Shown here piece by piece: positions 1,159 to 37,149 of a DNA stretch of 41,262 nt; position 1 is the first letter of the stretch; every line of letters begins with the position of its first letter. Source of the DNA: a virus; the IMG/VR virus record IMGVR_UViG_3300046836_000138, positions 1 through 41,262 of that record, one strand, 5' to 3'. A program made the translations under genes and the position numbers. Under the pieces are notes generated by a model, which worked only from the letters and a program-made list of their open reading frames with translations, had not been told where the DNA came from and ran no database searches.

Positions 1159-1320
1159 GCTGGTCGTTTTGTACCCTGCTGTTCCAATTTGGAACAGTAG
1201 TATGCGGGAACACGCAGGGTGCAATTCAAGGGGCCTTAGAGTTGTACACTGACCGTGATCCTCCCACACGGGCAATACACTTTAGGGTTCCCTGAATTGC
1301 AACTTTACAAAGGGAACAAG
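1159..1320. other. Intergenic control region with nested inverted repeats
   Basis: This 162-base gap carries a palindromic repeat (1181-1200) inside a larger inverted repeat: ACCCTGC (1173-1179) pairs with GCAGGGT (1214-1220). A second pair, GCAATTCA near 1221 and TGAATTGC near 1293, brackets the rest, and CCGTG/CACGG forms a small stem between them. There is no run of T after any stem, so a standard intrinsic terminator is not supported, and I see no clear -35/-10. It could be a regulatory leader for the operon starting at 1321. Confidence 0.5.
1181..1200 (+). repeat. Dispersed palindromic element, copy 1
   Basis: GTTCCA-ATT-TGGAAC followed by AGTAG. It is the first of five copies of a 15-bp palindrome that always has AGTAG on one side (others at 11745, 19679, 31501 and 37130). 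The core here is the same as in the copy at 31501, read on the other strand. Adding the flanking T and A gives a 17-bp palindrome. Confidence 0.88.
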
Positions 1321-1635
1321 ATGGAAAGTCACTGGAACTATCGGCGGGTTAAGCATATTAACTCAAAAGAGCCTTACGCCGAGCAAGGTTACTGCACCGT
1401 TCATGAGATACACTGGAATGCAGACCAAACCCCTCACCTCTTTAACTTCAACGATCTAAAAGTCTTCGAAAAAGAAGATCTAGAAAGGATCGCAGCCGCT
1501 TTTGACCACCCTCCTGTTGTCGAGGTAGATGATGCATCTATCTTCTGGGACGCAGAGGATGATTATGGAGTTTGGAATTACAAGACTTGGAAGTGGCTAG
1601 TCGAAAAGGATTCTTCAACTGTGGAGCAAGTGTGA
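1321..1635 (+). CDS. Hypothetical protein (104 aa)
   Basis: ATG 1321 has AAAGGGA at 1309-1315. The product is acidic and aromatic (many Trp, Tyr and His), for example a central HLFNFNDLKVFEKEDLERIAAA and a C-terminal FWDAEDDYGVWNYKTWKWL. No family recognised. It opens a tightly packed run of genes and its stop is directly followed by the GTG of the next gene. Confidence 0.68.
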   Translation: MESHWNYRRVKHINSKEPYAEQGYCTVHEIHWNADQTPHLFNFNDLKVFEKEDLERIAAAFDHPPVVEVDDASIFWDAEDDYGVWNYKTWKWLVEKDSSTVEQV

Positions 1636-1947
1636 GTGCGTAGAGTCTATGTGCTGAACCGCGGCGGGCATGATTATAGTGCTGCTGAAGAGTTTGGCGA
1701 AGTGGTGTATTGCACCGAGGGGAATCTCTCCAAGTGGGACATAAACCAGATGTATCGTATCGCTGAGGAGAACCTCGTCGATAGCGAGCCAAGCGACTAC
1801 ATCGTTCTCACCTCGTTGACCTCCCTATGTAGCGTCTACAGTGCTGTCTTCGCACACAAGCATGGCCGGCTGAACCTGCTAATCTTTAAGGACGGAGGGT
1901 ATGTGGAACGGACTCTAGTGATTGGGGAGGGCGTACCCTGTGGTTAA
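1636..1947 (+). CDS. Conserved phage protein (103 aa)
   Basis: GTG start abutting the previous stop, with GGAG 9 bases upstream (1623-1626). It starts RRVYVLNRGGHDYSAAEEFG and has a central DYIVLTSLTSLCSVYSAVFA and a conserved-looking HGRLNLLIFKDGGYVERT. I recognise this layout (VLN..GHDY..AE.FGE, then LTSLT, then HGRLNLL) as a small protein family common in phages, of unknown function. It overlaps the next gene by 8 bases, so translation is probably coupled. Confidence 0.76.
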   Translation: MRRVYVLNRGGHDYSAAEEFGEVVYCTEGNLSKWDINQMYRIAEENLVDSEPSDYIVLTSLTSLCSVYSAVFAHKHGRLNLLIFKDGGYVERTLVIGEGVPCG

Positions 1948-3419: not shown

Positions 3420-3609
3420 AAAGTTTGGGTGCGTTACCCTTCAAAAGCCTAGCCTACAGGGGCTTATCCTGATCGGTGGGATTTTTGCGATAGGTGGTCT
3501 TGGTATTCTCGCGTTAGTTCTTTCTGCCTTAACCATGAACGCTGTATCTCTGTGGGACTGCTTGGATAAGCTCGCGGTCAAAGTTATGGAAGGCCAGAAT
3601 GCCCAGTAA
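3412..3609 (+). CDS. Small single-span membrane protein (65 aa)
   Basis: ATG 3412 overlaps the upstream stop by 8 bases. One strong transmembrane helix runs from about residue 18 to 42 (GLILIGGIFAIGGLGILALV...), preceded by a basic N-terminus (MSKKFG) and followed by a soluble helix ending KVMEGQNAQ, suggesting N-in topology. It lies between nuclease and recombination genes rather than near the late lysis genes. Function unknown; membrane tethering, exclusion or inner-membrane remodelling are all possible. Confidence 0.62.
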   Translation: MSKKFGCVTLQKPSLQGLILIGGIFAIGGLGILALVLSALTMNAVSLWDCLDKLAVKVMEGQNAQ

Positions 3610-4408
3610 CGCAAAGGATGCTGCCGCAGCTACCTCCCGGCGCATTCTCGTCTTGGGAGACACTGGTGCAGGAAAGACTACACAGTTCCTCACCTTGAAA
3701 GGAAAGAAGTACATTCATCTTTTCGACCCGAACGCTCTTATGTCCTTAAGGGGCTACGATGTTGACTATGATGAGTACTTGCCTACCGCGATTCGAGGAG
3801 CCATCCAGAGCCTCTCTAAGGACAAGGGCGGCGATGCGCCGAAGAATCAGAAGTCTGACGTATATCGCACCTTCGAGCTCGAGTTCAACGAGCGCCTTGA
3901 GAATGGCTTCTACAATCAATACGACTGGATAGGCTTTGACTCCGCTACCACGCTGCTCGACCTAATGATGGATCGTGTCCTCTCGATCAACGGGCGCCTG
4001 GGCACCTGGCCTCAAGAAGATGATTGGGGTCCACAGATGATTGCCTTTACCAACATCTGCCGCACACTCGCGGGGGCTGGAAAGAACATCTACATGACCG
4101 GGCATATGCAAGATAAGAAGAACCGGAAAACTGGCGCTAGCTCTCGTGTCCCGATGATGACTGGCCAGCTGGCGCAGAAGATTCCCCTTCTCTTTACGGA
4201 CATCTTCGGCTTTGACTCTGACAAGACGGACGATGGAAAGGTAGGTTACTTTATGCACACGGTACGAGACCGTGAGTTTACAGTAATTCGTACTTCCATC
4301 AAAGGGCTAGAGCCGGTAGAAAATGTCACGATCCAGTGGGAGACTACAAAGGACCCTGTTGGGCAAGGACTTGGGGGAATTCTTTCATGGTCGGAGAAGA
4401 ATGGCTGA
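3599..4408 (+). CDS. Sak4-like P-loop ATPase (phage recombinase type)
   Basis: Starts inside the upstream gene's end. It has Walker A GDTGAGKTT (20-28), a Walker B-like YDWIGFDSATT (108-118), and a later TGHMQDKK segment typical of RecA/RadA-like cores. Phage proteins with this layout, about 230-270 residues and next to a RecB/Cas4-like nuclease and a DUF669-like protein, are annotated Sak4 or 'AAA family ATPase' and act in single-strand annealing or strand exchange. Here it probably works with the nuclease at 1940 and the protein at 5026. The assignment to Sak4 rather than another RecA-fold ATPase is by motif and context only. Confidence 0.8.
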   Translation: MPSNAKDAAAATSRRILVLGDTGAGKTTQFLTLKGKKYIHLFDPNALMSLRGYDVDYDEYLPTAIRGAIQSLSKDKGGDAPKNQKSDVYRTFELEFNERLENGFYNQYDWIGFDSATTLLDLMMDRVLSINGRLGTWPQEDDWGPQMIAFTNICRTLAGAGKNIYMTGHMQDKKNRKTGASSRVPMMTGQLAQKIPLLFTDIFGFDSDKTDDGKVGYFMHTVRDREFTVIRTSIKGLEPVENVTIQWETTKDPVGQGLGGILSWSEKNG

Positions 4409-4497: not shown

Positions 4498-4504
4498 GAG
4501 GCCC

Positions 4505-5005: not shown

Positions 5006-5025
5006 ACTAACCTAGGACTAAACCA

Positions 5026-5472
5026 ATGGCAAAGATTATTGTTAACCTGGCTGACCCCTCCGTCTCGGAGCCGAAGCCTGTTCCAGACTCCATGTATGAC
5101 CTGGAGATCGTCTCCGCTGAGTCCACAAGCAGCCAGGGCGGTTCGCCTCAAGTGGAGGTTCACATCGGAATCCTCGGCCATGAGGACGCACCGAACGTGC
5201 GGCACTACATCTCTCTCCCCAAGGAGGGTGATGACGCCGGAAAGCGCGGCACCAAGCTGCTCTTTGCGAAGCGCTTCTGCTCGCTGTTCAAGATTCCCTA
5301 CGACGAGACGGGCTTCGATACAGACGACTTCACTGGAAGCAAGGCTCGCGCCGAGCTTACCACGGAGGAGCGCAACGGGAATACCTACAACAAGCTGATT
5401 CTTCCTCGCCTGAAGGACGAGGGCGGCCTAAGCTCGACAAAGGCTGTCGCTAAGCCTCCGAAACGCGGGTAG
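5026..5472 (+). CDS. DUF669-like putative ssDNA-binding protein (148 aa)
   Basis: The pattern is a Pro-rich start (PVPDSMYDLEIVSAES), then a strand pair (PQVEVHIGILG...), then LFAKRFCSLFKIPYDETGFDTDDFTGSKARAELTTEERNG with a final N..Y..LILPRL. This order of a beta half, a helix with a conserved FCxxF-type core and an 'aka.l....rnG..YN' strand resembles the DUF669 proteins that accompany phage recombinases and act as ssDNA-binding proteins. The C-terminus is Lys/Pro-rich rather than acidic. The assignment is by resemblance and context. Confidence 0.58.
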   Translation: MAKIIVNLADPSVSEPKPVPDSMYDLEIVSAESTSSQGGSPQVEVHIGILGHEDAPNVRHYISLPKEGDDAGKRGTKLLFAKRFCSLFKIPYDETGFDTDDFTGSKARAELTTEERNGNTYNKLILPRLKDEGGLSSTKAVAKPPKRG

Positions 5473-5988: not shown

Positions 5989-6223
5989 CCTCGTGAAACC
6001 ACTAAGTGAGCAGACCGATGAAGAGCTACAGTCTCGTCTACGAGAGATACGTCACTCTAGAGAAAATGTTCGGCCTGCGGCGAAAAAGATCGTGGCCCGC
6101 ATTGAGGAGAAAACTGAGCGAAAGAAGGTGTCGAGGGTTCAAGACCTTCTTGAGGACCTTACACCTGAGGAAAAACTTAAGCTTGTTCAACAACTGTTAG
6201 CCCAAGGAGAGGGAAATGAGTGA
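5975..6223 (+). CDS. Conserved small phage protein (82 aa)
   Basis: ATG overlaps the previous gene by 14 bases. The product reads MKLRDLVKPLSEQTDEELQS, then RLREIRHSRENVRPAAKKIV, then a Lys/Glu-rich linker and a C-terminal helix (LTPEEKLKLVQQLLAQ). The pattern 'MTDEEL..RLR.LRH.R...RPA' is a familiar family of small charged phage proteins, all-helical and of unknown function. It overlaps the ParB-methyltransferase gene by 8 bases, so the two are probably translated together. Confidence 0.75.
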   Translation: MKLRDLVKPLSEQTDEELQSRLREIRHSRENVRPAAKKIVARIEEKTERKKVSRVQDLLEDLTPEEKLKLVQQLLAQGEGNE

Positions 6224-7535
6224 TGCAATACCGCAGGGTATTCCAAGAATTCTGAATATCGACGACATTAAGTGGGACACGCGCTATCGTGCAGAGTTCG
6301 GCGATCTGGAGGCGATGGCAGACTCCATTAGGGAAAAGGGGATAATCCAGCCAATCTCAGTTTCTACGAAGATGAAACTCCTCGCTGGGGAGCGGCGTAT
6401 TCGAGCGGCAAAGATGGCTGGGCTAACGAAAATTCCTGCCCTTGTACGGGAAGTAACTGGAGAGGTAGATGAGCGCGAAATCGAGCTTCTTGAAAATATC
6501 TATCGAGAAGACTTTACCTGGGCAGAGAAAGTCAAAGGTATTAGGGACATTGACCGTCTATACAGAGAAAAGCATATGGACTGGTCCGGACGGAAAACGG
6601 CGGAGCTTCTCAACAAAGGGATTGGAAGTGTCTCCAGATATCTACAACTGGCCAGTGCTATTGATTCCTTTCCTGAGCTTGCTGAGGTTGCTACAGCCGA
6701 GGAAGCCCTCAAGGTTGTCAAAAAGATTCAAGAAAAAGAGATTGTATCGGAGCTACGAAAGCGGCATGACGTTGACACGCCAGGCTTCAGCAAGGGCCTC
6801 AAAGCGATGCTCAAGATCGGCGAAAACAACTATAACATCGGGGATACTTTTAAGGGCCTCTCAGAACTCAGGACAAACGGAGTCGTGAACGTCATTGAGT
6901 GCGATCCTCCATATGGGATTGACCTCAAAGTGATGAAACGCGCAAAGGACAGCGCAACGGCGACGATCCACAAGTACAATGAGATCGACATAGACGAATA
7001 CCCACAATTTCTGCATACACTCACAAAGGAGCTTTACCGCGTAGCGGCACAGCACTCGTGGTTGATCTTCTGGTTCGGACCAACGTGGCAGCATCAAGTC
7101 CTCACAAGCCTCCGCGCAGCGGGTTGGAGTGTAGATGAGATTCCCTGTATCTGGGTAAAGTCTCAGGGACAGACCATGCAACCTGAAGTATACCTTGGCA
7201 GGGCGTATGAACCGTTCTATCTCTGCCGCAAAGGGATTCCTACCCTCATAAAGAGGGGCCGGCTGAACGTGTTTGATTTCGCTACGACACCTGGCCAGCA
7301 GAAGATTCACACCACGGAGAGACCTCTTCCCCTTATGGAAGAACTGTTGGAAACGGTAGGGCTTCCTGGCCAAGTGGTCTTGGTTCCCTTCCTTGGAAGT
7401 GGCAACACACTAAGGGCTGCCTACAAATGCGGTATGAAAGCCTTTGGCTGGGAGAAGTCCTCCGAGTACAAGGACCAGTTCATGCTAGCCATTGAGGCAG
7501 ACTCAAGGGCACTTGGGGCGGATGAAAATGAGTAA
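6216..7535 (+). CDS. ParB-domain / HTH / DNA methyltransferase fusion
   Basis: The N-terminal ParB/Srx-like domain (about 12-95) includes DLEAMADSIREKGIIQPI and the signature AGERRIRAAK (57-66). A ParB/KorB-like helix-turn-helix follows (about 122-146). The C-terminal half is a DNA methyltransferase with motif IV DPPYG (230-234) ahead of motif I FLGSG (392-396), so it has beta-type order and modifies an exocyclic amino group (N6-adenine or N4-cytosine). The family is known from phages, where such enzymes can protect DNA from host restriction. With a ParB-type reader and five dispersed palindromes in the same genome, sequence-targeted methylation or genome marking is a possible extra role (inference). 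Confidence 0.88.
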   Translation: MSDAIPQGIPRILNIDDIKWDTRYRAEFGDLEAMADSIREKGIIQPISVSTKMKLLAGERRIRAAKMAGLTKIPALVREVTGEVDEREIELLENIYREDFTWAEKVKGIRDIDRLYREKHMDWSGRKTAELLNKGIGSVSRYLQLASAIDSFPELAEVATAEEALKVVKKIQEKEIVSELRKRHDVDTPGFSKGLKAMLKIGENNYNIGDTFKGLSELRTNGVVNVIECDPPYGIDLKVMKRAKDSATATIHKYNEIDIDEYPQFLHTLTKELYRVAAQHSWLIFWFGPTWQHQVLTSLRAAGWSVDEIPCIWVKSQGQTMQPEVYLGRAYEPFYLCRKGIPTLIKRGRLNVFDFATTPGQQKIHTTERPLPLMEELLETVGLPGQVVLVPFLGSGNTLRAAYKCGMKAFGWEKSSEYKDQFMLAIEADSRALGADENE

Positions 7536-7788
7536 GAAGGTCATTATCTACATGAATGAGCAGTTGCACGCTCGCGTACCTAAACACGGTGTAATGACCG
7601 TGCAGCATGGTTCGGCCAAGTGGTACACTAACGAGATTGACTTGAAGCTTAGCATAAGCGCCAAGGTCTACCTTCGTCAAGACGAGGGAATAACCGTAGC
7701 TGGAAGGAAGATACGAGTGCTTTATAAACCAGAACTTTGCAGTGACGTGAAGAGCCACGAAGTGAAGGCTTGGATAGAGGTCACTTGA
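7528..7788 (+). CDS. Hypothetical protein (86 aa)
   Basis: ATG 7528 is chosen over ATG 7522 because GGGGCGG (7514-7520) then has a 7-base spacer. It starts MSKKVIIYMNEQLHARVPKHG and appears to be mostly beta (VMTVQHGSAKWYTNEIDLK, GITVAGRKIRVLY). No family recognised. Its stop overlaps the TTG start of the next gene. Confidence 0.62.
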   Translation: MSKKVIIYMNEQLHARVPKHGVMTVQHGSAKWYTNEIDLKLSISAKVYLRQDEGITVAGRKIRVLYKPELCSDVKSHEVKAWIEVT

Positions 7789-8789
7789 GCTTCACTCCGG
7801 AGACTGCTCCTCGTGTAATTCCTGCCGAAGGCCCCAAGAACGCAAAGATTGCGATCGTGGGTGAGGCGGGAGGCTCCTATGAGAATACTCAACTGCGGCC
7901 ATTTGTCGGCCCAGCAGGGGGAGTTCTTGAGCACTGTATGCACGCTGCAGGAATCATCCGCAGCGAGGTCTACATTACAAACGTAGTGAAGCTCCAGCCA
8001 AAAGGGAATGAGATCGCGCCGTACTTTAACGGTGCAAAGGGACAGTTCACCTTCGAGGGAAAACAATGGGTAGACGCTTTGCTAGAGGAGTTGCAAGGAG
8101 TAAAACCAAACGTGGTTGGAGTGTGCGGCGCTACCGCGCTGTGCGCGCTTACTGGAAAGACCAAGATCACAAAGTACAGGGGCTACGTATTGGAGGGTGT
8201 GAATCAACTGAAGGTGATTCCCCTTATTCACCCTGCGGCAGCATTGCGTGGTCAGTACGTATGGCGCTATCTCATAGCCACAGACCTAAAGAAGATTAAA
8301 GCGGAGAGCGGCTTTCCTGAAATCAGAAGGCCCCAAAGGCAGCTAGTCACTGAGTTCTCCCACGTTCACGAAGTACTTGAATGGATTGAGTACTTTGAGA
8401 AGGCAACTCGCGTGTGCTTTGATATTGAGGTGCTAAACTATGAACTGGCTTGCATTAGTTTTAGTGACACTGCTAGCACTGCTTGCAGTATTCCTCTCGA
8501 TCATCGCTGGAGCGAGAGCGACGAAGCTCTCATTTGGAGAGGGCTGCAAAGAGTTCTTGGAAATCCTGCGTCCACAAAAGTAGGCCAAAATCTTATCTTT
8601 GATATACACTTTCTACTTACAAAGTGTGGCATCGAAGTGAAGGGTCCTTTAGAAGATACGATGGTGGCTCACTCAGTGATGTTCCCAGAGCTGAACAAGG
8701 GGCTTGGTTTCCTTGTGTCCCTCTACGGAGGGAGTCAAGCTTACTACAAGGACATGGTGAAATTCTCTAACATAAAGGAAGAGTCATGA
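7785..8789 (+). CDS. Uracil-DNA glycosylase-like domain fused to N-terminal part of a 3'-5' exonuclease
   Basis: TTG 7785 overlaps the previous stop (TTGA); no ATG or GTG is available in frame. Residues 20-156 form a family 4-type UDG fold: VGEAGGSYENTQ..PFVGPAGG (25-46), ITNVVK (64-69) and LIHPAA (147-152) with H149. The usual four Fe-S cysteines are missing. Residues 205-330 are DnaQ-like: Exo I D213/E215 (FDIEV) and Exo II N269/D273 (NLIFD). The frame ends before Exo III, which is at the start of the polymerase gene at 9037. This is the N-terminal part of an SPO1-like family A polymerase carried as a separate protein. Confidence 0.85.
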   Translation: MSFTPETAPRVIPAEGPKNAKIAIVGEAGGSYENTQLRPFVGPAGGVLEHCMHAAGIIRSEVYITNVVKLQPKGNEIAPYFNGAKGQFTFEGKQWVDALLEELQGVKPNVVGVCGATALCALTGKTKITKYRGYVLEGVNQLKVIPLIHPAAALRGQYVWRYLIATDLKKIKAESGFPEIRRPQRQLVTEFSHVHEVLEWIEYFEKATRVCFDIEVLNYELACISFSDTASTACSIPLDHRWSESDEALIWRGLQRVLGNPASTKVGQNLIFDIHFLLTKCGIEVKGPLEDTMVAHSVMFPELNKGLGFLVSLYGGSQAYYKDMVKFSNIKEES

Positions 8790-9040
8790 CAGCGCCAAGT
8801 CACGACCTCAACGACTGTTGTCAGCATTGCAAGTGCTGGCTTGGGGATCGTTCTAGTAAAGATGGTGAGGCCCAGGGAGAGTGTCATCTAGACCCTCCTC
8901 AGGGAGTTGGAATGGTCCCTAGGCCTAGCCTCCTAAATCCAAAGGCTATGGACCTGCAACTGATCTTTGGCTGGCCCACTGTGAAGGCGCTACAGTGGTG
9001 CAGCAGGTTCGAAAGAGCTGTTGAACCGACGAAGCAATGA
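8786..9040 (+). CDS. Zinc-binding micro-protein lying inside the split polymerase locus (84 aa)
   Basis: ATGA overlaps at both ends (8786-8789 and 9037-9040) link it to the two polymerase parts. CQHCKCWLG, GECHLDPPQG and ALQWCSRFERA give the pattern C-x2-C ... GEC..PP ... WC..F of a short zinc-ribbon family widespread in phages and bacteria ('CGNC.FW...GECRR.PP ... DWCGEF'). Its position exactly between Exo II and Exo III of the polymerase exonuclease is unusual. It may be a cargo gene inserted there or may help the two parts assemble. Confidence 0.72.
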   Translation: MTAPSHDLNDCCQHCKCWLGDRSSKDGEAQGECHLDPPQGVGMVPRPSLLNPKAMDLQLIFGWPTVKALQWCSRFERAVEPTKQ

Positions 9041-10563
9041 ACAACGATTTCCTAACCTACAACGCGCTGGATGCAGCGTGCACTATTGAGTGCCGGGACG
9101 CCTTCTGGGAGGACCTCTCTTTGGAAGGCTATCAGCCTGCTTATGACATGACGGTGGCAATCTACGAACCCCTCATGTTTATGCAGACTCGTGGCATCAA
9201 AGTAAACTTTGAGGCGCTTACTTCCACTAAGGTAAGCATTCTCGCAAGTGCAGCCGAGAAACAAGAAGAGCTGAACAAACTTTGCGGAAGGGAACTGAAT
9301 GTCAACTCCTCCAAGGACTGCCAAGCCTATTTCTACGTTGAGCGAGGAATTGCTCCTTACTATAACGAAGGACGAGTCACGGTGGACGACTTGGCCCTGC
9401 AACGTATGTCGAGAGGTACTGCTAAGCGGGGAGGGCTTCGAGAAGCAAAGCTTGTTCAGGAGATTCGTGGTCTTCAAAAGCTACATGGAACCTATCTCGA
9501 CATTGAGTTTGACCCTGACGGACGGATGCGTTGTAGCTATAACCCTCGAGGGACTAAATTTGGACGACTAAGCTCGAGTAAGACTGTTTTTGGCACTGGC
9601 ACGAACATGCAGAACTTGCCTCAAGAGTTCAAGAAGTTTCTTGTGGCAGACCCAGGTTATGTCTTGTGGGAAGTGGATAAGCGGCAAGCTGAGTGGGTTG
9701 TAGTCGCCTACCTAACGCAAGACGCGAATATGCTTAGCGTCGTGGAGAGCGGGCAGGATACTCACATCCACACCGCTTCGTTGATGTTCAACGTAGAAAA
9801 GGAGCTACTTGAATATGAAGCCAAGATCGTGGGGAACAATAGCGATAGTGACTACATTAGCGGGCTGCGCACTAGTGATGACAGGCTGCGCAGCTTGGAG
9901 GGAAAACTCCCTCGCACCATGTCAGCCAGACAGTGCGGAAAGAAGTCTAACCACGGCCTCAACTACGATGAAGGGTTCGCAAAGTTTGCCCTCATCAACG
10001 AGATGGAACAATCAGAATCCAAACGAATCTGGCTCCTGTACCGCCACATTTATCCTGGACTGCCCCTGTGGTATGAAGCCATTAAGCGGCAGCTGTCTCG
10101 AGACAGAACTCTTACCAACTGTTTCGGACGAAAAGTAAGATTCATGGATGCTTGGGGGCCGGACCTTTGGAAGGCGGCTTACTCCATGCTTCCGCAATCC
10201 ACGGTAGTTGATTCACTAAACCAGGGGATGGTAAGAATCTACCACGATGAAGAGCTGTGCGATGCACATGCCAGTAATATAGATTTACTTGGGCAGGTTC
10301 ATGACTCAATTCTTCTTCAAGTTCCGGAGTGGCTAATTCAAGACCCTAGCTTTCAGGATGTACAGAAGCAGGTCTATGACTATGTCTCACCTGAGCTGAC
10401 CTACAATGGGAGGACCTTTAAGATTGCCACAGACTCCAAGTTTGGCCTCAACTGGGGCGGATTTCATAAGGAGCTAAATCCGCTTGGAATGAGAGAGGTC
10501 AAAAGCCACAATGAACTAAAGAAGACCTTGGGGGAACTCGGTGTCCAAGCGAGAACTGGATGA
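9037..10563 (+). CDS. Family A DNA polymerase, catalytic subunit (with Exo III only)
   Basis: It begins MNNDFLTYNALDAACT, which is the Exo III motif (Y8, D12) completing the exonuclease begun in the previous-but-one gene. Polymerase motif A is WEVDKRQAEW with D214. Motif B is RQCGKKSNHGLNY (R298, K302, H306, Y310), with His where Pol I has Phe762. Motif C is QVHDSI (D423), with Ser in place of the usual Glu. The two catalytic Asp residues are present. It probably replicates the phage genome together with the UDG-exonuclease protein. The frame runs to within the start of the helicase-like gene (23-base overlap). Confidence 0.9.
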   Translation: MNNDFLTYNALDAACTIECRDAFWEDLSLEGYQPAYDMTVAIYEPLMFMQTRGIKVNFEALTSTKVSILASAAEKQEELNKLCGRELNVNSSKDCQAYFYVERGIAPYYNEGRVTVDDLALQRMSRGTAKRGGLREAKLVQEIRGLQKLHGTYLDIEFDPDGRMRCSYNPRGTKFGRLSSSKTVFGTGTNMQNLPQEFKKFLVADPGYVLWEVDKRQAEWVVVAYLTQDANMLSVVESGQDTHIHTASLMFNVEKELLEYEAKIVGNNSDSDYISGLRTSDDRLRSLEGKLPRTMSARQCGKKSNHGLNYDEGFAKFALINEMEQSESKRIWLLYRHIYPGLPLWYEAIKRQLSRDRTLTNCFGRKVRFMDAWGPDLWKAAYSMLPQSTVVDSLNQGMVRIYHDEELCDAHASNIDLLGQVHDSILLQVPEWLIQDPSFQDVQKQVYDYVSPELTYNGRTFKIATDSKFGLNWGGFHKELNPLGMREVKSHNELKKTLGELGVQARTG

Positions 10564-11743
10564 TTGGCTTACGAGATATCTTGAGTACACAGAGCAGACA
10601 GAGCCTCCTACGACGTATCACACTTGGTGTGGTCTATCGGTCGTGGCGGGGGCGCTCCAACGCAAGGTGTATCTGGAGTGGGGATTCGAGACGATCTATC
10701 CGAACCTCTTTGTTGTTCTTATTGGGCCCTCAGGAAAGGCCAGAAAAGGGGTGGCGCTCGGGATTGCTAAGTCATTACTACTCGGACTACCAAGTGTGTC
10801 TATTGCGCCGGAATCGACTTCTGGCCGCGAAGCGCTCATCCTTGCGATGAAGCGATCGCTGAGTAACTTCTCTCTACCTAACGGCGGCAAGATAAACTTT
10901 CACTGCTCCATTACTGCTTTCAGTGAGGAGCTTTCAGTTCTACTCGGCCAGGGAGACATAAAGCTCCTTGCAAACTTAACGGACTGGTATGACTCAAAAG
11001 ATGAGTGGGAATATGAAACGATCGGACGGGGTAAGGATTCGCTCCAAGGTCTTTGTTTCAATCTTATGGGAGCAACAGCACCCGACTGGCTACAGTCCAT
11101 GCTCCCACAGGAAGCTGTTGGTGGAGGCTTTACGTCGCGCGTTATCTTTATCGTGGAGGAAGCAAAGGGAAAGACGGTTCCCGAGCCCCCTCCCCCCAAC
11201 AAGGAGCTGGGGGATCGTCTACGTAGAGACCTTGAACGGATCAACCAACTCAAAGGAGAATTCACGTTCACGGAGTCGGGGAAGAGATGCTATATCAACT
11301 GGTACAAAGAGCAAGACCGTCTACTTGGGGAAGATACGCCAGCGGTAAAGGATACGCGCTTCGCAGCTTACTGTGAGCGCCGAGCCACACATCTCCGAAA
11401 GCTAATGATGCTCGTAAGCGCTAGCCAGGGTGATACACTGAAGCTCGACCAAGTCGACTTTGATAAGGCTATACGAATTCTACAAACCGCTGAAGTGAAA
11501 ATGGGTAAGACCTTCGGCGGTCTCGGCCAGGCAAAGAACTCAGACGTCACAGAGAAAATCTTGAATTACATCAAGAGCGTCAAGACCACAACTCGAAAGG
11601 TGATAATTGCAAGGTTCTACCGCGATGTAGATATGTTTGCGCTGAACAACATCGAAGCGATGCTGGACGCAATGAAGGTCGTAAAGATTGAGGTGATACC
11701 TAAAACTAACGAAAAGGTGTATAGATGGATCGGGAACGACTAA
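10541..11743 (+). CDS. DUF3987-like helicase/primase-type protein (400 aa)
   Basis: GTG start overlapping the polymerase gene, with a GGGGGA site. It has a P-loop-like IGPSGKARKG (61-70) in which Gly follows the Lys, a family variant rather than the textbook GKT/S, and an acidic AFSEELS (126-132) in the Walker B position. A winged-helix-like C-terminus follows (about 330-395: TEKILNYIKSVKTTTRKVIIARFYRDV). Proteins of this kind next to phage polymerases serve as replicative helicases or helicase-loaders. I see no separate primase in the window, so initiation may depend on the host or on this protein. It is the last replication gene before the palindrome at 11745. Confidence 0.74.
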   Translation: MSKRELDDWLTRYLEYTEQTEPPTTYHTWCGLSVVAGALQRKVYLEWGFETIYPNLFVVLIGPSGKARKGVALGIAKSLLLGLPSVSIAPESTSGREALILAMKRSLSNFSLPNGGKINFHCSITAFSEELSVLLGQGDIKLLANLTDWYDSKDEWEYETIGRGKDSLQGLCFNLMGATAPDWLQSMLPQEAVGGGFTSRVIFIVEEAKGKTVPEPPPPNKELGDRLRRDLERINQLKGEFTFTESGKRCYINWYKEQDRLLGEDTPAVKDTRFAAYCERRATHLRKLMMLVSASQGDTLKLDQVDFDKAIRILQTAEVKMGKTFGGLGQAKNSDVTEKILNYIKSVKTTTRKVIIARFYRDVDMFALNNIEAMLDAMKVVKIEVIPKTNEKVYRWIGND

Positions 11744-11744
11744 T

Positions 11745-11764
11745 GTTCCATGTTGGAACAGTAG
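11745..11764 (+). repeat. Dispersed palindromic element, copy 2
   Basis: GTTCCA-TGT-TGGAAC plus AGTAG, starting one base after the stop of the helicase-like gene. It fills most of the 30-base gap before the next start. The core is identical to the copies at 19684 and 37130 read on the plus strand. Confidence 0.88.
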
Positions 11765-11773
11765 AGGATTAAC

Positions 11774-12007
11774 ATGATAACCTCTGGTAATATAAAGCTA
11801 GACGCCATCGTCGCAGAGCTTGAAGCCACAGTACTAGGCTTCGTCGAAGGAAACGCCCTCAAAGCCGCTGAGATAGCAGCCTTGAAGGCGGAGATTACAA
11901 CGCTAAACGAAGCGCTAAAGGCAGCTAACGCACTGCTCGAAAAGCGTAAGCGGAAGCCTAAGCCTTTGGCACCACAAGAGCTGCCGCAGCCGCCTGCACC
12001 TGGTTAG
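11774..12007 (+). CDS. Small coiled-coil protein (77 aa)
   Basis: AGAGGA precedes ATG 11774. Residues 8-57 are an Ala/Leu/Glu heptad-rich helix (AALKAEITTLNEALKAANALLEK), then a basic patch (KRKRKPK) and a Pro-rich tail. It is the last rightward gene and its final 50 bases overlap, tail to tail, the end of the last leftward gene. Function unknown; it could be a scaffold or DNA-binding oligomer. Confidence 0.6.
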   Translation: MITSGNIKLDAIVAELEATVLGFVEGNALKAAEIAALKAEITTLNEALKAANALLEKRKRKPKPLAPQELPQPPAPG

Positions 12008-12212: not shown

Positions 12213-12229
12213 TTCTGTTCCTTTCGTGG

Positions 12230-13089: not shown

Positions 13090-13115
13090 CAAGACCCCTC
13101 TCATAGTTAGTGGTT

Positions 13116-18800: not shown

Positions 18801-20549
18801 TTTTACTGTGGGAAGCTGCGCGGTAGCCTTAGCAGCCTCTTTATCCATCGCGGCAGCAGCACGCTTGTCTGCCTCGGCAGTTTCCTTTACAGCGCGCACG
18901 AGGTCGTAGTTCTTGAGCTTCTCCTCTGGTACAGTAGCCATATAGTCTGCCACATGCGCAAGGTAGTCATGAATCGCACGCTGTGCACCTATCGCATCTC
19001 GGTGGGCACTTCCATAGTGCCACACAACCGAATCTTGGGGAATATCAGGAAAGGTTTGGCGCTCTTCAAAATACTTCTTTCCCATCATTTCTTTGGGAAC
19101 ACGATACTTAAAGCTCCCAGCATGCTTTGCGTCCACAGCCTTATCCCAGGCTTCACCCCAAGTTACGGTATCTTGGCCCAGCTGGCGAGCAGGAATCTCA
19201 ATGTCTTTGAGAGGGTCTCGAGCTGTAGCAGCGTATTTGTTAAGATAGTTATTAACCATCCTACTAGTATGCTGTTCGTATTTAGGGTTTCGCCCGCCAT
19301 ATCGGTCAAGAGGCTCAGATATACGAGCTACTGTAGCCGGATGCCAGAAGCCTCCACTCTCCTTAATGTGCCCCATCAAGCCACCAGCAGCCAAGCCTTC
19401 AAAGGCCCCTTGCAGCTTATCATCACTGAGGTAAGAGCCCAGCGCTGCCCCTCCAGTCACAGCAGCAAGCTTTGCCACCGTGTCAATATCCACGCTGCCA
19501 CGCTCGCCCTTTGCGCGATGAATAGCCTCCAAGCGCTGCTTAAGCGCCGTGAGCTCTTCTGGCGTAGCCACATTACTTACATCTGGAGTGCGGGCTTCAG
19601 CCTCTGCCTTCAAGGCCGATGCGTCTACAGTACCAGGCAGCGGAGGTACGCTGGGGTCGTAGAGGCCCCTTGCTTCTCCTACTGTTCCATGTTGGAACGG
19701 TTCTTCCATTGGCCGCATAGTCGCAGCCGGCCCCTTCATACGAGGCTTCGTAGCCTGCTTCGTTCCCTCAGAGCTGAGCCACGACGCTAGCTGGGTCTCG
19801 TCCTCGAAGGCCGGCGGTTGCCCCGCGGTAGGCTGTTCCGTACCAGGCGCCTTTTCCTGCGGCTTCAGCAAGGACGCAGTTGGCTGCTCCCGGCCAGCTG
19901 GTCGTTCCAGGGAGCCATTCAAAGCCCTACGAGCTTTAAGCGCCCTGGCAGCAGAGGCTGTTCCTTCTGTACCCAGACCAGCCATCAGTGTATCTACAAT
20001 ACCCTGAACATCCTCCTTCAGAATACGCCCTCCGGTACTTTTCTCAATCTGCTCTCCACCGCGCTCAATCGCACCAGAGACCTTTTGGAGAGCCTGAGCT
20101 ACATTGGTAGCATCATAATCCTTCCCGTAACCCATCTTCTGCATGAGCTTCTGCACGGAAAGCGGATTATGCTCCATCACGTAGTCAGCAGCAGCTTGCC
20201 CTGTTTGAGCAGCCATCTTGCGATTCTCACCAGCGCCTACTGCATAGGCACTTGCACCACCCCTTGCTCCCACAGAAACAAGAAGCGCTGGAAGTGAGAG
20301 AATCGTATCTGCAACCGGCGGAACCTCTTGCAGCGCCTTACTTACCATCCTTGCAGGAGGTGTACTAAGGATGGCTGAACCCGCAGCTTTCGAGAACTCA
20401 GTAAATCGGCTAGGCTCGTCCTTTTTGCCGAGCTGCTCTGAGTAGCGCTTAAACCCAGCGGGGGCTTCCGCAGGCTTGTTCACATCTGGCGCTGGGGTCT
20501 CTCCTGAGGGAGCTGACTTAAGCGCAGCAGAGTAATCTGAAAAGCTCAC
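15813..20549 (-). CDS. Large polyvalent internal virion protein with PcfJ-like domain (1578 aa)
   Basis: GTG start coupled to the upstream stop. After a disordered N-terminus (1-345, Pro/Ala/Glu-rich) come two related glycine-rich helical hairpins (352-392 and 819-862), each opening with RG[SA]VD and containing GA..G..L. Residues about 570-750 resemble the PcfJ domain (GHCVGGYCEGVAAGESRIFSLRD, then ITQIRGKQNRAP). The C-terminal 700 residues are helical, with LNVSFSLFHAK and SGHHIWQNNDPTRIDLGNGQ. It is probably packed in the head and ejected with the DNA, as with other polyvalent phage proteins. The membrane-type hairpins could help form an ejection channel. Confidence 0.75.
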   Translation of the reverse strand: MSFSDYSAALKSAPSGETPAPDVNKPAEAPAGFKRYSEQLGKKDEPSRFTEFSKAAGSAILSTPPARMVSKALQEVPPVADTILSLPALLVSVGARGGASAYAVGAGENRKMAAQTGQAAADYVMEHNPLSVQKLMQKMGYGKDYDATNVAQALQKVSGAIERGGEQIEKSTGGRILKEDVQGIVDTLMAGLGTEGTASAARALKARRALNGSLERPAGREQPTASLLKPQEKAPGTEQPTAGQPPAFEDETQLASWLSSEGTKQATKPRMKGPAATMRPMEEPFQHGTVGEARGLYDPSVPPLPGTVDASALKAEAEARTPDVSNVATPEELTALKQRLEAIHRAKGERGSVDIDTVAKLAAVTGGAALGSYLSDDKLQGAFEGLAAGGLMGHIKESGGFWHPATVARISEPLDRYGGRNPKYEQHTSRMVNNYLNKYAATARDPLKDIEIPARQLGQDTVTWGEAWDKAVDAKHAGSFKYRVPKEMMGKKYFEERQTFPDIPQDSVVWHYGSAHRDAIGAQRAIHDYLAHVADYMATVPEEKLKNYDLVRAVKETAEADKRAAAAMDKEAAKATAQLPTVKEYPDGYKWVEIKEPEELTPEQMKGVGKIPGGLRMSWDNGPHIPHDSEGKPIFNRFRGREVGGEQTPERAWLSGRLTEEGNALGHCVGGYCEGVAAGESRIFSLRDEKGRSHVTVEVKPDTGKTGGGATKRFKDDGDITQIRGKQNRAPEEKYVPYVQDLIRSGKWGKVYELDNARLLQGDHIDMHNAGTGKKLDPEDIGLSSDKYYTENEVAEAIQKASKDMPIAANYRRIQQQRGAVDVRLLKNLAAASLGVAAGAYLDPQDPLTGAVLGAGAALAAVNGRAVVNSLKNMSKDTRIRIDHLPDAWEGMIKDGALNVYRVQQEMNRLAPKGDFAKITKYLEGDKSVVLTTQEAQAARLMLNVLIATQKAGLSAGVMSNSLENYMKRIWLDGKALRAYMNAPKAGSTLYQGMRQTNKAPTIAEGKAAGLKPVSEDARHLLGVYVNSVIRSIAAKQLVDSLKAFRDPAGEAVVRPAKGAPMGWQRINSPHLMGSVVHPDIAPSIRFVLDNADPSMIMRGLEGINLVIKRLNVSFSLFHAKALLDAYIGAGGDVTNLPGIAAGTDRFLQGLKKLDPNTEKYIQLSRKNGLEFSLEGVASDDVRTTKAGFRSIQNWMDTAIPGMGSLGRAVEHINALSDRFMWERLHAGMKLNIFTREFDRLQKSNAAAHAKNPSVALMAEDEIAKIASSYTNDLFGGLNWRRVAESIQNRFGRDLALEAFKPANRRIMQLLIFAPDWTISTFRAAAGSLAGGLKGTPLSRMHRMYMLRSAIYYTAIAEAINYPLSGHHIWQNNDPTRIDLGNGQTMQWSKHFTEPFHWGTMPVQQGLNKLGILPKAAANFALGTEYLSSQGHSPKAQGGRFSRLARQALPISVAQQFEAGPGAGISGFFGVPIYGKSTQQREQEKLRNRLERQINPSPQQIQKRVGKISTPYDDLRASDTPGRPGTYTNEMQRRSMLVDRKMALEAKISSVQSRLDPDEIKRYSARELPEKRKRRVEF
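19679..19698 (-). repeat. Dispersed palindromic element, copy 3 (inside a gene)
   Basis: On the minus strand this reads GTTCCAACATGGAACAGTAG. It is the only copy inside a coding region; there it encodes PFQHGTV in the disordered N-terminal part of the polyvalent protein, where an insertion would be tolerated. Confidence 0.85.
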
Positions 20550-31500: not shown

Positions 31501-31520
31501 CTACTGTTCCAAATTGGAAC
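31501..31520 (-). repeat. Dispersed palindromic element, copy 4
   Basis: On the minus strand this reads GTTCCAATTTGGAACAGTAG, the same core as copy 1 at 1181. It lies in the 108-base gap after the major capsid gene, between the capsid hairpin and the ribosome-site hairpin of the next gene. Confidence 0.88.
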
Positions 31521-31527
31521 ATCAGGA

Positions 31528-31543: not shown

Positions 31544-31561
31544 GCCTCATGCACCTACTTG

Positions 31562-32482: not shown

Positions 32483-32496
32483 GTTGGTCTCCTATC

Positions 32497-33111: not shown

Positions 33112-33134
33112 TATGGCCCTCCATTAGGTTGAGT

Positions 33135-35115: not shown

Positions 35116-37123
35116 CACCCTCTGCTTTCTGAGCTTCTAGCTCCATCTGTTTCATCAAGAGATCTATATGTTTTCCGTATATTTCATCCTTACCTTTCGC
35201 CACCTCAAGCTGGGCTTTGAATGCTTCAAGTTGCTGGCTAGCCGCCACGCCCTGGGCTTCTGCCATAAGCTTAGCCGCTTGAGCTTCTAGCTGGATGATC
35301 TTCGCCTGATTAAGCTTGCGATCTTCCATCACTTCAATGAGGAACTGTTGACGGTCAAGTTGAAGCTGAAGCATCTTAGGCTGTTGCTTCATCTGCTCAA
35401 CCATAACCTTGTAGTTCGGAAGCGGAGGAACCTTTCCAGGTCCAGGATAGATCACATCCACTCCATCAACGCGTAGCGCCTTCAGCCACCGCTTCTCGAC
35501 CTCTTGCAGATTATACCCCTGTGTGGTCATTGCGTTCTGTTTGAGGGCCTGCGCTTGCATCAGCCGCATGTTGTCCGAAGTCACGTTCGGGTCTGCCACA
35601 GGGCAAATCTCACTAGGGTCGCCAAGGTAATCTTCCCGCTGCACCCAACCCTGGCGAGAGCCAAAGTTCTTTTTGAGCGGCATGTACATAGCGTTCAACA
35701 CGTAAAGCTTGCGGAACTCTTCCTTCATGCACTGCCAGTGTGTTTTGAAGGTCGCATTGTAGATCTTCTGCCCCATCTCAGCCATTCGCCTATGCGTCTC
35801 CGCCGGCGTGTTCTGGCCAGGGTTCTCTCCCACAGTGGCATCGTGCGCACCGCTTACACGATTCGCGTACTCAATTAGGAGCCCCAACAGGTTGAAGAGA
35901 ACCATGCTTGGTTCGCCGATAGGCAAAGGAACCATGCTCTTTTGCAGATCATCTCCCGTTGAATCTACGTGAGTCCACGTAAAGGGGCTAAACTGGTGAA
36001 CGCCGCCGCGAATCTTTGCTCCGCGCCCAAGAAAGCCTCCCCTTGTATTCTGCATCGTTCCAGCATCCAGCAGCTGATTGATGGCAGAATTCACCGACTC
36101 ATTTAGGGGTCCAAGCAGCACCCCAAAGCCTATATCGTAAATGCCCCCATCAGGGGAGGGGATGAATCCATACTTGGTGAAGTACTCCTGGGAACGAATC
36201 CGTAAGACTTCTGACCGCACCTTCTCCACATCCTGCCAGTCAAACCTCGTAACGATGCGAACGATCTCCTGAGAGGAACTTTCCAGCGTGATGATGTAAG
36301 GCTCGGCGTATCCATCCCCGTCCAGGTCCAGAAGACAGTGCTGTTCAAGTGTAGTGAATGGCGTGGTCTCGTCTGGTTGGGGGGTAGATACGCCTTGCCG
36401 GTTGTCTCGTTTTGCGTCTTGATGCGTAGGTGAAAGCGGCTGTGCGTTACCTTGGAACCAAGCTGTGTCCCGTACATCTCGGTAGACGCCAGTCACTGAA
36501 TTCTCATAAAGCTCATTTCTGAACTTCTGCAGCACCTGCGTCTTGCGCGGAGATGTCTCCACGGAGGTAGAGTAGTAATCCAGCACCAAGTCCCGCGCCA
36601 GGACCATCTCACTGATGGGGAAGCCATGCTTCGGCGAGTAGTAACTCTTCTTGAACGTCGTGCCGACTATGCAATTATTCAAGATGAGTTTTGAATGCTG
36701 CGGCTCCCACTCGCGATCTTCCTCGAGGCGCTGGTAGCTCATATGAGCACCTATGCGCTCTGCTCGATCCTTTTTCTGACCCTTCGGATCATCCCCTACG
36801 ACGCGATATTGAACTACATCTGGCGGGATGATGAGCACTGGGTAGGCCATCGCGTGATACTGCATCGAGCCTACCGTGATGAGGGGGAACTTCACGTTCG
36901 CGCAGTTGGGCCACGGAAAGTTCTTTGCCTCAGCGATCTGTAGCGCCAGGTTCATCCCAGCCTCTGCGCGGCGCTCCCACTTGAAGCGGCTCTGCCGATC
37001 TCGCTCGAACCCCTCCCACACAGTGCTACCAATGGTTGTGAGATCACGGTCGCTAAAGCGGTCGCACAAGTTCACCTCTTTCGTGACTTGTTCATTTAGC
37101 TCAATGTGCTTTTCAAGATTCAT
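35012..37123 (-). CDS. Portal protein, P22-like (703 aa)
   Basis: Length and pattern fit podovirus portals: a core with NFPWPNCANVKFPLITVGSMQYHAMAYP, VGTTFKKSYYSPKHG, a conserved GVLLGPLNESVNSAINQLLDA and a late GAHDATVGENPGQN, then a Gln/Glu-rich helix (about 590-680) and a Gly/Gln tail. It forms the dodecameric ring for DNA packing and release. It follows the large terminase gene, separated by a gap filled by a palindrome copy. Confidence 0.85.
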   Translation of the reverse strand: MNLEKHIELNEQVTKEVNLCDRFSDRDLTTIGSTVWEGFERDRQSRFKWERRAEAGMNLALQIAEAKNFPWPNCANVKFPLITVGSMQYHAMAYPVLIIPPDVVQYRVVGDDPKGQKKDRAERIGAHMSYQRLEEDREWEPQHSKLILNNCIVGTTFKKSYYSPKHGFPISEMVLARDLVLDYYSTSVETSPRKTQVLQKFRNELYENSVTGVYRDVRDTAWFQGNAQPLSPTHQDAKRDNRQGVSTPQPDETTPFTTLEQHCLLDLDGDGYAEPYIITLESSSQEIVRIVTRFDWQDVEKVRSEVLRIRSQEYFTKYGFIPSPDGGIYDIGFGVLLGPLNESVNSAINQLLDAGTMQNTRGGFLGRGAKIRGGVHQFSPFTWTHVDSTGDDLQKSMVPLPIGEPSMVLFNLLGLLIEYANRVSGAHDATVGENPGQNTPAETHRRMAEMGQKIYNATFKTHWQCMKEEFRKLYVLNAMYMPLKKNFGSRQGWVQREDYLGDPSEICPVADPNVTSDNMRLMQAQALKQNAMTTQGYNLQEVEKRWLKALRVDGVDVIYPGPGKVPPLPNYKVMVEQMKQQPKMLQLQLDRQQFLIEVMEDRKLNQAKIIQLEAQAAKLMAEAQGVAASQQLEAFKAQLEVAKGKDEIYGKHIDLLMKQMELEAQKAEGDGGQGTGQGGVGQLGGPAGGAGIPGAAPAEAGPA

Positions 37124-37129
37124 AGGAGC

Positions 37130-37149
37130 GTTCCATGTTGGAACAGTAG
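37130..37149 (+). repeat. Dispersed palindromic element, copy 5
   Basis: GTTCCA-TGT-TGGAAC plus AGTAG. It fills almost the whole 26-base gap between the terminase stop (37150) and the portal start (37123). Both flanking genes are leftward while the AGTAG side points right, so its direction is not tied to transcription. Confidence 0.88.

What the first reader, a model, noticed from the sequence alone, without database searches (positions are those of the whole stretch)
1181..37149. Five copies of a 20-base directional palindrome, possibly sites for the phage ParB-methyltransferase
GTTCCAWNWTGGAACAGTAG occurs at 1181, 11745, 19679 (minus), 31501 (minus) and 37130. Seventeen fixed positions five times in 41 kb is not chance. 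Four copies are between genes although gaps are only a few percent of the genome; in two gaps (11744-11773 and 37124-37149) the element is nearly all there is, as if inserted. The core TGTTCCA-nnn-TGGAACA resembles parS (TGTTnCACGTGnAACA) in half-site layout. The phage also encodes a ParB-domain/HTH/methyltransferase fusion (6216-7535). Together these suggest a phage genome-marking, segregation or gene-silencing system with dispersed sites. Alternatives: a repressor operator, an RNA stem, or a mobile repeat.
Basis: partly seen in the sequence, partly recalled or inferred. Interest (0 to 1): 0.82.

Follow-up and report, generated by a model that had tools for sequence, protein, structure and literature searches.

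The report
Phage methylase's own scattered docking sites
A group of phages scatters a short mirror-image DNA word evenly along each genome, and comparison across relatives indicates that this word is the landing site of a ParB-like DNA-modifying enzyme made by the same phage, with site and enzyme changing together.

Summary
The repeat is real: five exact copies, where 0.03 matches are expected by chance even with 3 mismatches. A near-identical contig holds another copy outside the window.

It recurs at the same gene junctions in relatives whose proteins are about 30-67% identical. Phages with diverged ParB-methyltransferase fusions carry their own word in the same frame: 6-base arm, 3-base spacer, 6-base arm. 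A blind palindrome search found such a family in 19 of 20 contigs of which I held at least 37 kb, and in 9 of 16 from a later batch (three of those weak).

The word tracks the DNA-reading helix of the fusion. By permutation score residue 141 ranks first of 367 columns for arm base 5, and residue 137 for base 3. Residue 141 aligns with ParB N178, which contacts parS. The correlation survives correction for methylase divergence (p=0.0005). A one-residue rule failed on new data (4 of 9): this is covariation, not a solved code.

Sites are spaced more evenly than chance (CV 0.44 against 0.81; replicated). CTP-binding and methylase residues are nearly invariant.

Best reading: loading sites for a ParB-type clamp carrying a methylase along the phage's own DNA.

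The parts
1181..1200 (+). Site 1, GTTCCA-ATT-TGGAAC-AGTAG, in the gap after gene 793-1158; same position in L018 and L045
11745..11764 (+). Site 2, GTTCCA-TGT-TGGAAC-AGTAG, between the DUF3987 primase/helicase-like gene and ORF 11774-12007; same junction side in L045, and in G014 with the variant word
19679..19698 (-). Site 3, GTTCCA-ACA-TGGAAC-AGTAG, inside the 1578-aa ORF (frame reads E-P-F-Q-H-G-T-V-G-E)
31501..31520 (-). Site 4, GTTCCA-ATT-TGGAAC-AGTAG, just downstream of the major head protein gene; same position in L006, L009, L012, L016 and L039, and in G014 with the variant word
37130..37149 (+). Site 5, GTTCCA-TGT-TGGAAC-AGTAG, between terminase large subunit and portal genes; same position in L039, and in G014 with an imperfect copy of the variant word
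6216..7535 (+). ParB_N-HTH-N6/N4-methyltransferase fusion, 439 aa: the proposed reader of the sites
6276..6500 (+). ParB_N (CTP-fold) domain, residues 21-95; G58 R60 R61 and E93 N94 R97 nearly invariant in relatives
6612..6638 (+). Turn and recognition-helix residues 133-141 (NKGIGSVSR); columns 141 and 137 rank first for arm bases 5 and 3
6885..7481 (+). Methyltransferase domain, residues 224-422, with DPPY and PFLGSG motifs; structural matches to N6-adenine enzymes M.BceJIV and CcrM

Best explanation
The palindromes are the phage's parS-like sites. A dimer of the ParB-HTH-methyltransferase fusion reads one half-site per subunit with the recognition helix of its ParB-type HTH: the inner 6-base arm, plus a looser outer arm that is AGTAG in this phage. 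Its CTP-binding ParB fold then closes it into a clamp that leaves the site and slides, carrying the fused adenine-type methylase along the DNA. Because 4-12 sites are spread about every 4-10 kb, the whole phage genome, but not host DNA or another phage's, is served with methylase and becomes marked as self, most likely against restriction. Site and helix change together from phage to phage, so each phage marks its own kind. SHOWN by computation: the site family, its syntenic positions, its even spacing, its covariation with the HTH, and conserved catalytic and CTP residues. INFERRED: binding itself, CTP clamping and sliding, and the target and purpose of methylation.
For: (1) Five exact copies against 0.03 expected; the exact 20-mer occurs in 12 viral contigs, many copies at matching gene junctions in relatives with about 30-67% protein identity. 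(2) Phages with diverged fusions have their own 6-3-6 word: 19 of 20 contigs of which at least 37 kb were held, with fusion of at least 33% identity, exceed all 12 shuffles; the Desulfofustis phage OP947158 also does (6 exact GTCCCA). (3) In G014 the word ATTCAC-N3-GTGAAT or close variants sits at junctions that hold GTTCCA sites in relatives, and its helix differs. (4) Blind column scan on 34 phages: residue 141 for base 5, and 137 then 136 for base 3, rank first by permutation z among 367 columns; partial Mantel controlling methylase distance r=0.32, p=0.0005 for the recognition helix. (5) On a methylase-only tree R141 and base-5 C each change 8 times and agree in 33 of 33 first-batch genomes. 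(6) Leave-one-out on 28 phages: nearest recognition helix gives the exact arm in 16, nearest methylase or ParB_N in 9 each. Held-out fragments: the predicted arm is present exactly in 13 of 21, other arms in 0.4% of checks. (7) Residue 141 aligns with Caulobacter ParB N178, a parS contact; the N-terminal model matches ParB, KorB and Noc structures, including ParB with a CTP analogue and Spo0J-parS. (8) Spacing more even than random in 18 genomes (CV 0.437 against 0.808, 0 of 3000 simulations) and in 6 further ones (0.423 against 0.827, 0 of 3000). (9) CTP-box and methylase residues nearly invariant in 111 fusions. (10) In a 3.4-Mb genome bin 6 of 7 GTAACA palindromes lie on the 44.5-kb contig with the fusion.
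Against: The rule 'residue 141 sets base 5' (R to C; N, Q, K, E or M to A; D to G), perfect in the first 33 genomes, held in only 5 of 11 new loci and 4 of 9 new near-full contigs (read off). Nearest-helix prediction on those 9 was exact in 2, with 1.69 mismatches against 2.52 by chance; ParB_N similarity did better (exact 4, 1.44). The column scan favours the helix only for bases 3 and 5: top columns for bases 2, 4 and 6 are 143, 287 and 402, and residue 76 is a close second for base 5. Of 16 later contigs 7 fail the formal palindrome test; two of these (G093, G094) show sites in altered or imperfect form and five show none. G076 fails the strict cut. G016-G018, with very distant fusions, show none that is convincing. 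Two controls (G024, MW314858) edged past their shuffles by one point, with 0 and 1 exact copies, so weak passes such as G083, G095 and G096 should not be trusted alone. Arm base 6 is A in 32 of 34 phages, so the site could itself hold the methylated base. No binding, CTP or methylation data exist for these proteins.
Confidence: 0.58

Rival explanations
1. The palindrome is the methylase's own substrate: the ParB HTH acts as target-recognition domain and the enzyme methylates only these sites, as a switch for packaging, replication or repair.
For: Specific HTH recognition fused to a methylase. Arm base 6 is A in 32 of 34 phages, a possible target. BCE_0392, another prophage ParB-methylase, gave weak m6A and no restriction-enzyme specificity was found.
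Against: The rest of the word changes freely and two words have T or C at base 6; conserved CTP-box residues would be unneeded.
Confidence: 0.15
2. The fusion binds the sites, but as a transcription regulator of KorB type: clamps at dispersed operators silence or insulate genes, and the methylase only tunes binding.
For: The N-terminal model matches KorB structures, one with operator DNA. Sites sit mostly between genes (101 of 153 by crude ORF calls).
Against: Spacing is even along whole genomes, orientation differs between phages at the same junction (L039 against window), and one window site is inside a long ORF.
Confidence: 0.13
3. The sites serve genome compaction, segregation or packaging through a ParB-like partition complex, and methylation is a side activity.
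For: ParB fold and parS-like sites. Noc, a close structural match, works (recalled) from many dispersed chromosomal sites.
Against: No ParA and no integrase among the 19 window proteins scanned; methylase residues nearly invariant in 111 fusions.
Confidence: 0.07
4. Another phage or host DNA-binding protein reads the palindromes, and the fusion merely travels with them.
For: No direct binding data. The one-residue rule failed on new data. Other proteins of the genomes were not scanned for the same signal.
Against: The best columns for two arm bases fall in the recognition helix, and the HTH but not the two parts of ParB_N predicts site distance beyond methylase distance.
Confidence: 0.05
5. 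RNA hairpin, terminator, or mobile palindromic repeat.
For: 6-bp stem with 3-nt loop; short intergenic element. In some phages (G036, G043, G047, G054, G076) copies differ, in G043 and G047 sometimes on both arms together.
Against: In many phages arms are identical among 8-10 copies while changing between phages; orientation relative to transcription is not kept; positions are syntenic while the word changes.
Confidence: 0.02

Closest known systems
Chromosomal ParB-parS (Spo0J, Caulobacter ParB) and Noc-NBS
   Same: Same CTP fold and HTH by sequence and structure; palindromic sites; specificity residues in the same helix (R173 and N178 of ParB align with 136 and 141). Noc sites are also dispersed (recalled).
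   Different: The C-terminal part is a DNA methylase; no ParA found; arms are separated by 3 bases; 4-12 sites tile a 37-50-kb phage contig; the site word varies from phage to phage.
Cluster O mycobacteriophage 17-bp repeats (Corndog, Ryadel)
   Same: More than 30 dispersed TGTTCGG-NNN-CCGAACA palindromes of the same geometry (29 exact 6-3-6 copies in 42.7 kb of Ryadel) and a ParB-like gene. The authors expect an unidentified dimeric binder and say most sites are not promoter-linked.
   Different: The ParB-like protein has no Pfam methylase domain. The residue aligned by eye with 141 is H, whereas the one-residue rule would ask for D at that base, so the code gives no support here; the link is an analogy.
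Prophage ParB-methyltransferase BCE_0392 (Bacillus cereus)
   Same: A ParB-methylase in a prophage; makes m6A in E. coli by LC-MS.
   Different: No recognition sequence was found and the passages read describe no dispersed sites; homology to this family was not tested here.
Cluster A mycobacteriophage stoperators
   Same: Repeated sites dispersed through a phage genome (named).
   Different: Stoperators are asymmetric and oriented with transcription; these are palindromes without fixed orientation, and no repressor or integrase was seen among 19 proteins scanned.

Membership tests
ParB CTPase family (PF02195) | ParB_N domain above Pfam cutoff | tested here: met
   PF02195, 60.1 bits against cutoff 26.3
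ParB CTPase family (PF02195) | CTP-binding boxes (GxRR; ENxxR) | tested here: met
   G58, R60, R61, E93, N94, R97 each conserved in 107-109 of 111 fusions
ParB CTPase family (PF02195) | ParB-type HTH following the fold | tested here: met
   Profile alignment through the HTH to 6t1f; model matches 6t1f Z 12.2 over 154 residues and 4umk Spo0J-parS Z 8.5 over 93
ParB CTPase family (PF02195) | CTP-dependent clamp closure and sliding | not testable with these tools
   needs protein
ParABS partition system | ParA ATPase partner | tested here: not met
   Of 19 window proteins scanned none is ParA; the ATPase at 3599-4408 is Sak4-like. The window is not the complete genome and small ORFs were not scanned
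ParABS partition system | C-terminal ParB dimerisation domain | tested here: not met
   The C-terminal part is PF01555 methylase
Beta-class N6/N4 DNA methyltransferase | PF01555 with DPPY and FxGxG motifs | tested here: met
   67.6 bits against 26.7; residues; Z 24.6 to M.BceJIV, 24.2 to CcrM
Beta-class N6/N4 DNA methyltransferase | Methylation activity and target | not testable with these tools
   no reads or protein
parS-like site | Specific palindrome read by the ParB HTH | tested here: inconclusive
   Significant covariation but no binding assay; single-residue rule not predictive
Stoperator | Asymmetric, oriented with transcription | tested here: not met
   Palindromic; orientation differs at the same junction

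The most novel reading that the evidence does not exclude
A self-recognition system in phages: a CTP-gated ParB clamp delivers a DNA methylase in cis from evenly tiled loading sites, so that sequence specificity for the genome as a whole lies in the loading sites rather than in the methylase's short target. The site word and the reading helix diversify together, giving each phage lineage its own identity tag.
Probability: 0.4. Interest if true: 0.94.

Novelty: new variant of a known kind. Interest (0 to 1): 0.86.

Why it matters
Phage ParB-methylase fusions are known to be common but have no assigned role or DNA site in the passages of the 2025 survey that I read. This gives them candidate cognate sites that can be read off the genome, with dozens of natural protein-site pairs for testing how an HTH changes specificity. 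It offers a direct test of whether a sliding clamp can deliver a methylase to one chosen genome. It also suggests what to test for the cluster O mycobacteriophage repeats, unexplained in the 2015 paper, and why a prophage ParB-methylase might look specificity-free or inactive on DNA that lacks its site.

Tried and rejected
Hairpin promoter for a phage RNA polymerase: considered because of the 6-bp stem and 3-nt loop; dropped because no RNA polymerase was found among the 19 proteins scanned and orientation is not fixed.

One-residue recognition code: fitted 33 of 33 first-batch genomes, rejected as a rule after new loci (5 of 11; 4 of 9). The covariation across 34 phages stands.

Carrying the code to cluster O: the residue in Ryadel's ParB-like protein aligned by eye with 141 is H where the rule asks for D; no support.

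Same geometry in all relatives: not so. G022, G023 and G026 have a longer palindrome, TTTGTAGGAATTAAT-N4-ATTAATTCCTACAAA (consensus by eye); G093 has GTTCAA with a 4-base spacer; G016, G017, G018, G082, G087, G089, G091 and G092 gave nothing convincing.

Low-power contigs: one search covered 50 contigs of at least 9.9 kb, 38 passed; among passes with low scores the words of G013, G016, G026, G049 and G055 are not credible as site families.

No near DNA match in the phage collection to window 6216-15000. The first direct-repeat scan of six pieces gave only background apart from the G021 family told under Noticed in passing.

Rows dropped before counts: the accepted set needed score 6 or more or more; G016, G026 and G049 were left out (weak or different geometry); G009 (found by motif) and five distant fusions out of the held-out set, where tied predictions counted as a hit if any tied arm was present; of 17 second-batch contigs, G090 was fetched only in part and not analysed. 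Proteins over 90% identical were collapsed. Sites with 2 mismatches were not counted in spacing; the window's count there includes one near-match at 31821 that is probably not a site.

On the compulsory re-check I lowered the best explanation from 0.60 to 0.58, KorB-type from 0.15 to 0.13, compaction from 0.08 to 0.07, other reader from 0.06 to 0.05, the novel case from 0.42 to 0.40, and raised the substrate rival from 0.13 to 0.15, because base 6 proved to be A in 32 of 34 phages.
Full report
WHAT IS THERE. The window is a 41,262-base viral record encoding the fusion, a Sak4-like protein, a split family-A DNA polymerase, a DUF3987 primase/helicase-like protein, a major head protein, portal and large terminase. 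It is not complete: contig L038, 99.6-99.99% identical where it aligns, continues 4187 bases to the left and has a further core site at L038:799.

RELATIVES WITH THE SAME WORD. The exact 20-mer occurs in 12 viral contigs (13 stretches), one of them L038's. The core GTTCCA-N3-TGGAAC is in 13 of 31 records searched whole. Aligning the window's proteins to them shows about 30-67% identity and recurring junctions: after the head-protein gene, between terminase and portal, after gene 793-1158, and after the DUF3987 gene. Orientation is not conserved: the site after the head-protein gene in L039 faces the other way relative to its genes. The fusion was found in 10 of the 31 records. Five are close (50-100%), and four of those five hold the core word. 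Nine records hold the word without a fusion match; all are fragments of 4.4-17.6 kb.

THE FIFTH, G014, HAS ANOTHER WORD. Its fusion is about 50% identical. At the post-head-gene junction, the terminase-portal junction, the post-DUF3987 junction and the junction before the homologue of gene 5026-5472 it has ATTCAC-N3-GTGAAT or close variants. The last junction carries GTTCCA sites in L007 and L042. Its HTH reads WNQQKTADLLEMSVGITNK where the other four have the pattern WSxR[KR]TAxLLxxGxx[ST]VSR.

THE PATTERN IS COMMON IN FUSION PHAGES. A profile search gave 53 fusion-bearing loci, one in a bacterial genome bin and the Desulfofustis phage OP947158. For each I asked, without using the protein, which 6-base arm in a 6-3-6 palindrome is most over-represented, and compared it with Markov shuffles. 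Of 20 contigs of which at least 37 kb were held, with a fusion of at least 33% identity, 19 exceed all 12 shuffles; G076 ties. Words in this set and in shorter contigs include GTTCCA, GTTCAA, GTTCAT, ATTCAC, GTCCCA, GTCCAA, GTGCCA, GTAACA, TTAACA, GTAAAA, GTAAGA, GGTAAA and GGTTAA. Over all 50 contigs of at least 9.9 kb 38 pass, a few with words that are not credible. Among controls, T7, lambda, D3112, the fusion-less relative G021, MW202796 (no ParB annotated) and ON073792 do not exceed their shuffles at this spacing; G024 and MW314858 exceed by one point with 0 and 1 exact copies. At other spacings MW202796 has a low-complexity TATATA family, and ON073792, a ParA-ParB element, has five exact GTTCAG palindromes with a 4-base spacer.

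THE WORD TRACKS THE READING HELIX. In 25 non-redundant phages the column of the fusion that best explains arm base 5 was residue 141, fully (MI equal to the entropy); for base 3 it was residue 137; bases 2 and 4 were best matched by columns elsewhere that follow one large clade. On a tree of the methylase domain alone, R141 and C at base 5 each change 8 times, and 33 of 33 genomes agree; treekit counted 4 of 4 independent pairs concordant on its starred branches, too few for significance by itself. Leave-one-out on 28 phages, the nearest recognition helix gives the exact arm in 16, the nearest ParB_N or methylase in 9. For 21 held-out fragments the arm predicted from the nearest helix is present exactly in 13 and within one mismatch in 17, against 0.4% and 5.6% for other arms; eight of the 21 have a 9-of-9 identical helix in the training set, and some of their sites had been seen, so this is support, not a blind trial. 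Residues 133-141 form the turn and start of the recognition helix (H136-151 in the models). By profile alignment VSR(141) lies over VAN of Caulobacter ParB. N178 and R173 are listed among the parS contacts in PMC7383237 (passages read), and that paper shows residue 173 and others switching specificity between parS and the Noc site.

WHERE IT DID NOT HOLD. I then fetched 57 further fusions (319 matched, the best 80 were kept) and tested the rule fixed. It held in 5 of 11 loci with a detectable word. Of 16 near-full contigs, nine pass the palindrome test (G083, G095 and G096 weakly), G093 and G094 fail it but show sites in slightly different form, and five show none. In those nine the rule held in four. 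Helices of the SVGGINR type read GTTCAA although they carry R141. Nearest-helix prediction was exact in 2 of 9 (mean 1.69 mismatches; chance 2.52; ParB_N exact 4, 1.44; methylase exact 1, 2.28). So no simple code exists. The association does: with all 34 non-redundant phages residue 141 still ranks first of 367 columns by permutation z for base 5 (residue 76 has slightly higher raw MI), and 137 then 136 for base 3; for bases 2, 4 and 6 the top columns are 143, 287 (137 second) and 402. Partial Mantel tests against methylase distance give r=0.321, p=0.0005 for the recognition helix and r=0.312, p=0.001 for the preceding HTH helix, while two parts of ParB_N, helix 102-119 and residues 145-160 are not significant; residues 161-180 reach p=0.02.

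SPACING AND PLACEMENT. In 19 near-complete genomes 101 of 153 sites lie in gaps by crude ORF calls, where gaps make up 4-15% of the sequence. Spacing is more even than random: mean CV 0.437 against 0.808 in 18 genomes, no simulation of 3000 as even; in 6 later ones 0.423 against 0.827, again none of 3000. Regulatory operators would not be expected to tile a genome; loading sites for something that serves the whole genome would. Selection against close repeats could add to this and is not excluded. In the 3.4-Mb bin G080, 6 of 7 exact GTAACA palindromes are on the 44.5-kb contig with the fusion; the seventh has a different centre.

THE PROTEIN. The N-terminal 196 residues model well (pLDDT 89) and align with Caulobacter ParB 6t1f (Z 12.2, 154 residues), KorB 8qa9 (Z 12.1, 169) and Noc 7nfu (Z 12.4, 173). 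The C-terminal part aligns with the N6-adenine methylases M.BceJIV (Z 24.6, 215 residues) and CcrM (Z 24.2, 225); N4-cytosine enzymes score nearly as well (23.4), so the base is not settled. Across 111 fusions the CTP boxes and the DPPY and FxGxG motifs are nearly invariant. The outer AGTAG is an extra half-site seen on both sides in relatives, for example AGTAGT outward in G010.

MECHANISM. Inference from ParB biology: load at the palindrome, close on CTP, slide, methylate in cis. This explains together the fusion, the conserved CTP boxes, the even tiling, the placement mostly between genes and the lineage-specific words. None of these steps is shown for this protein. The main rival is that the palindrome is itself the substrate: arm base 6 is A in 32 of 34 phages. 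A related kind of prophage ParB-methylase, BCE_0392, put m6A into E. coli DNA, but no specificity was found, and an earlier report cited there saw no activity on lambda DNA (PMC3459991, passages read); a need for a loading site would explain that, as speculation.

WHAT IS KNOWN. The ParB-fold survey PMC12704722 (passages read) lists N6/N4-methylase fusions as frequent in phages and suggests anti-defence or phage-host interaction; the passages I read describe no sites. PMC4351075 (passages) describes 34 copies of TGTTCGG-N3-CCGAACA in Corndog, expects a dimeric binder, and doubts that its ParB-like protein serves genome stability; the same geometry here makes that protein the first suspect, though my one-residue rule does not fit it. 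PMC3089641 (passages) notes a ParB-like domain on Wolbachia prophage adenine methylases. My searches for phage ParB-methylases with dispersed or parS-like sites (listings seen) showed no prior report in this open-access library; subscription papers and preprints are not held.

VERDICT. As a kind this is a new variant of the ParB-parS theme: a methylase in place of the partition machinery, many tiled sites, and a diversifying word.

Noticed in passing
window 7770-10563: Family-A DNA polymerase is split: 7770-8789 carries uracil-DNA-glycosylase and exonuclease domains, 9037-10563 the polymerase domain, with a small ORF 8786-9040 between. In the Desulfofustis phage one ORF of 2.5 kb is annotated DNA polymerase.
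   Followed up: partly
window 14512-15816: ATP-grasp protein related to phosphoribosylglycinamide synthetase (GARS_A above Pfam cutoff); a possible nucleotide-modification gene. A 30%-identical homologue is in L043.
   Followed up: no
window 15813-20549: 1578-aa protein with a PcfJ-like stretch (658-731); site 3 lies within the gene in a stretch reading FQHGT.
   Followed up: no
L074-L076 (G026), L080-L081 (G022), L071-L073 (G023): Relatives by terminase (52%) carry a longer dispersed palindrome, TTTGTAGGAATTAAT-N4-ATTAATTCCTACAAA, with 11, 8 and 3-6 copies; G023 and G026 have a distant ParB-methylase.
   Followed up: partly
L193 (Mycobacterium phage Ryadel 30000-72658): Cluster O 17-bp dyads have the same 6-3-6 frame (29 exact in 42.7 kb) and the phage has a ParB-like protein without a Pfam methylase domain.
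   Followed up: partly
L282-L283 (G093): GTTCAA palindromes with a 4-base instead of a 3-base spacer.
   Followed up: no
L196 (Aphanizomenon phage Yong-DA record): Five exact GTTCAG palindromes with a 4-base spacer in a ParA-ParB-bearing, plasmid-like record; possibly its own parS.
   Followed up: no
L077 (G021): Five copies about 1-1.6 kb apart of a 32-mer like TGTGTTTGACAC...TAGTTCC, promoter-like, in a relative without a fusion match.
   Followed up: no
window 41058-41262: GA-rich low-complexity run near the right end (translated as a run of S-L pairs; GAGAG repeats controls); may mark an assembly edge.
   Followed up: no
L131 / G080: A 38%-identical fusion on a 44.5-kb contig binned with a Pseudomonadota genome, probably a phage; 6 of the bin's 7 GTAACA palindromes are on it.
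   Followed up: partly
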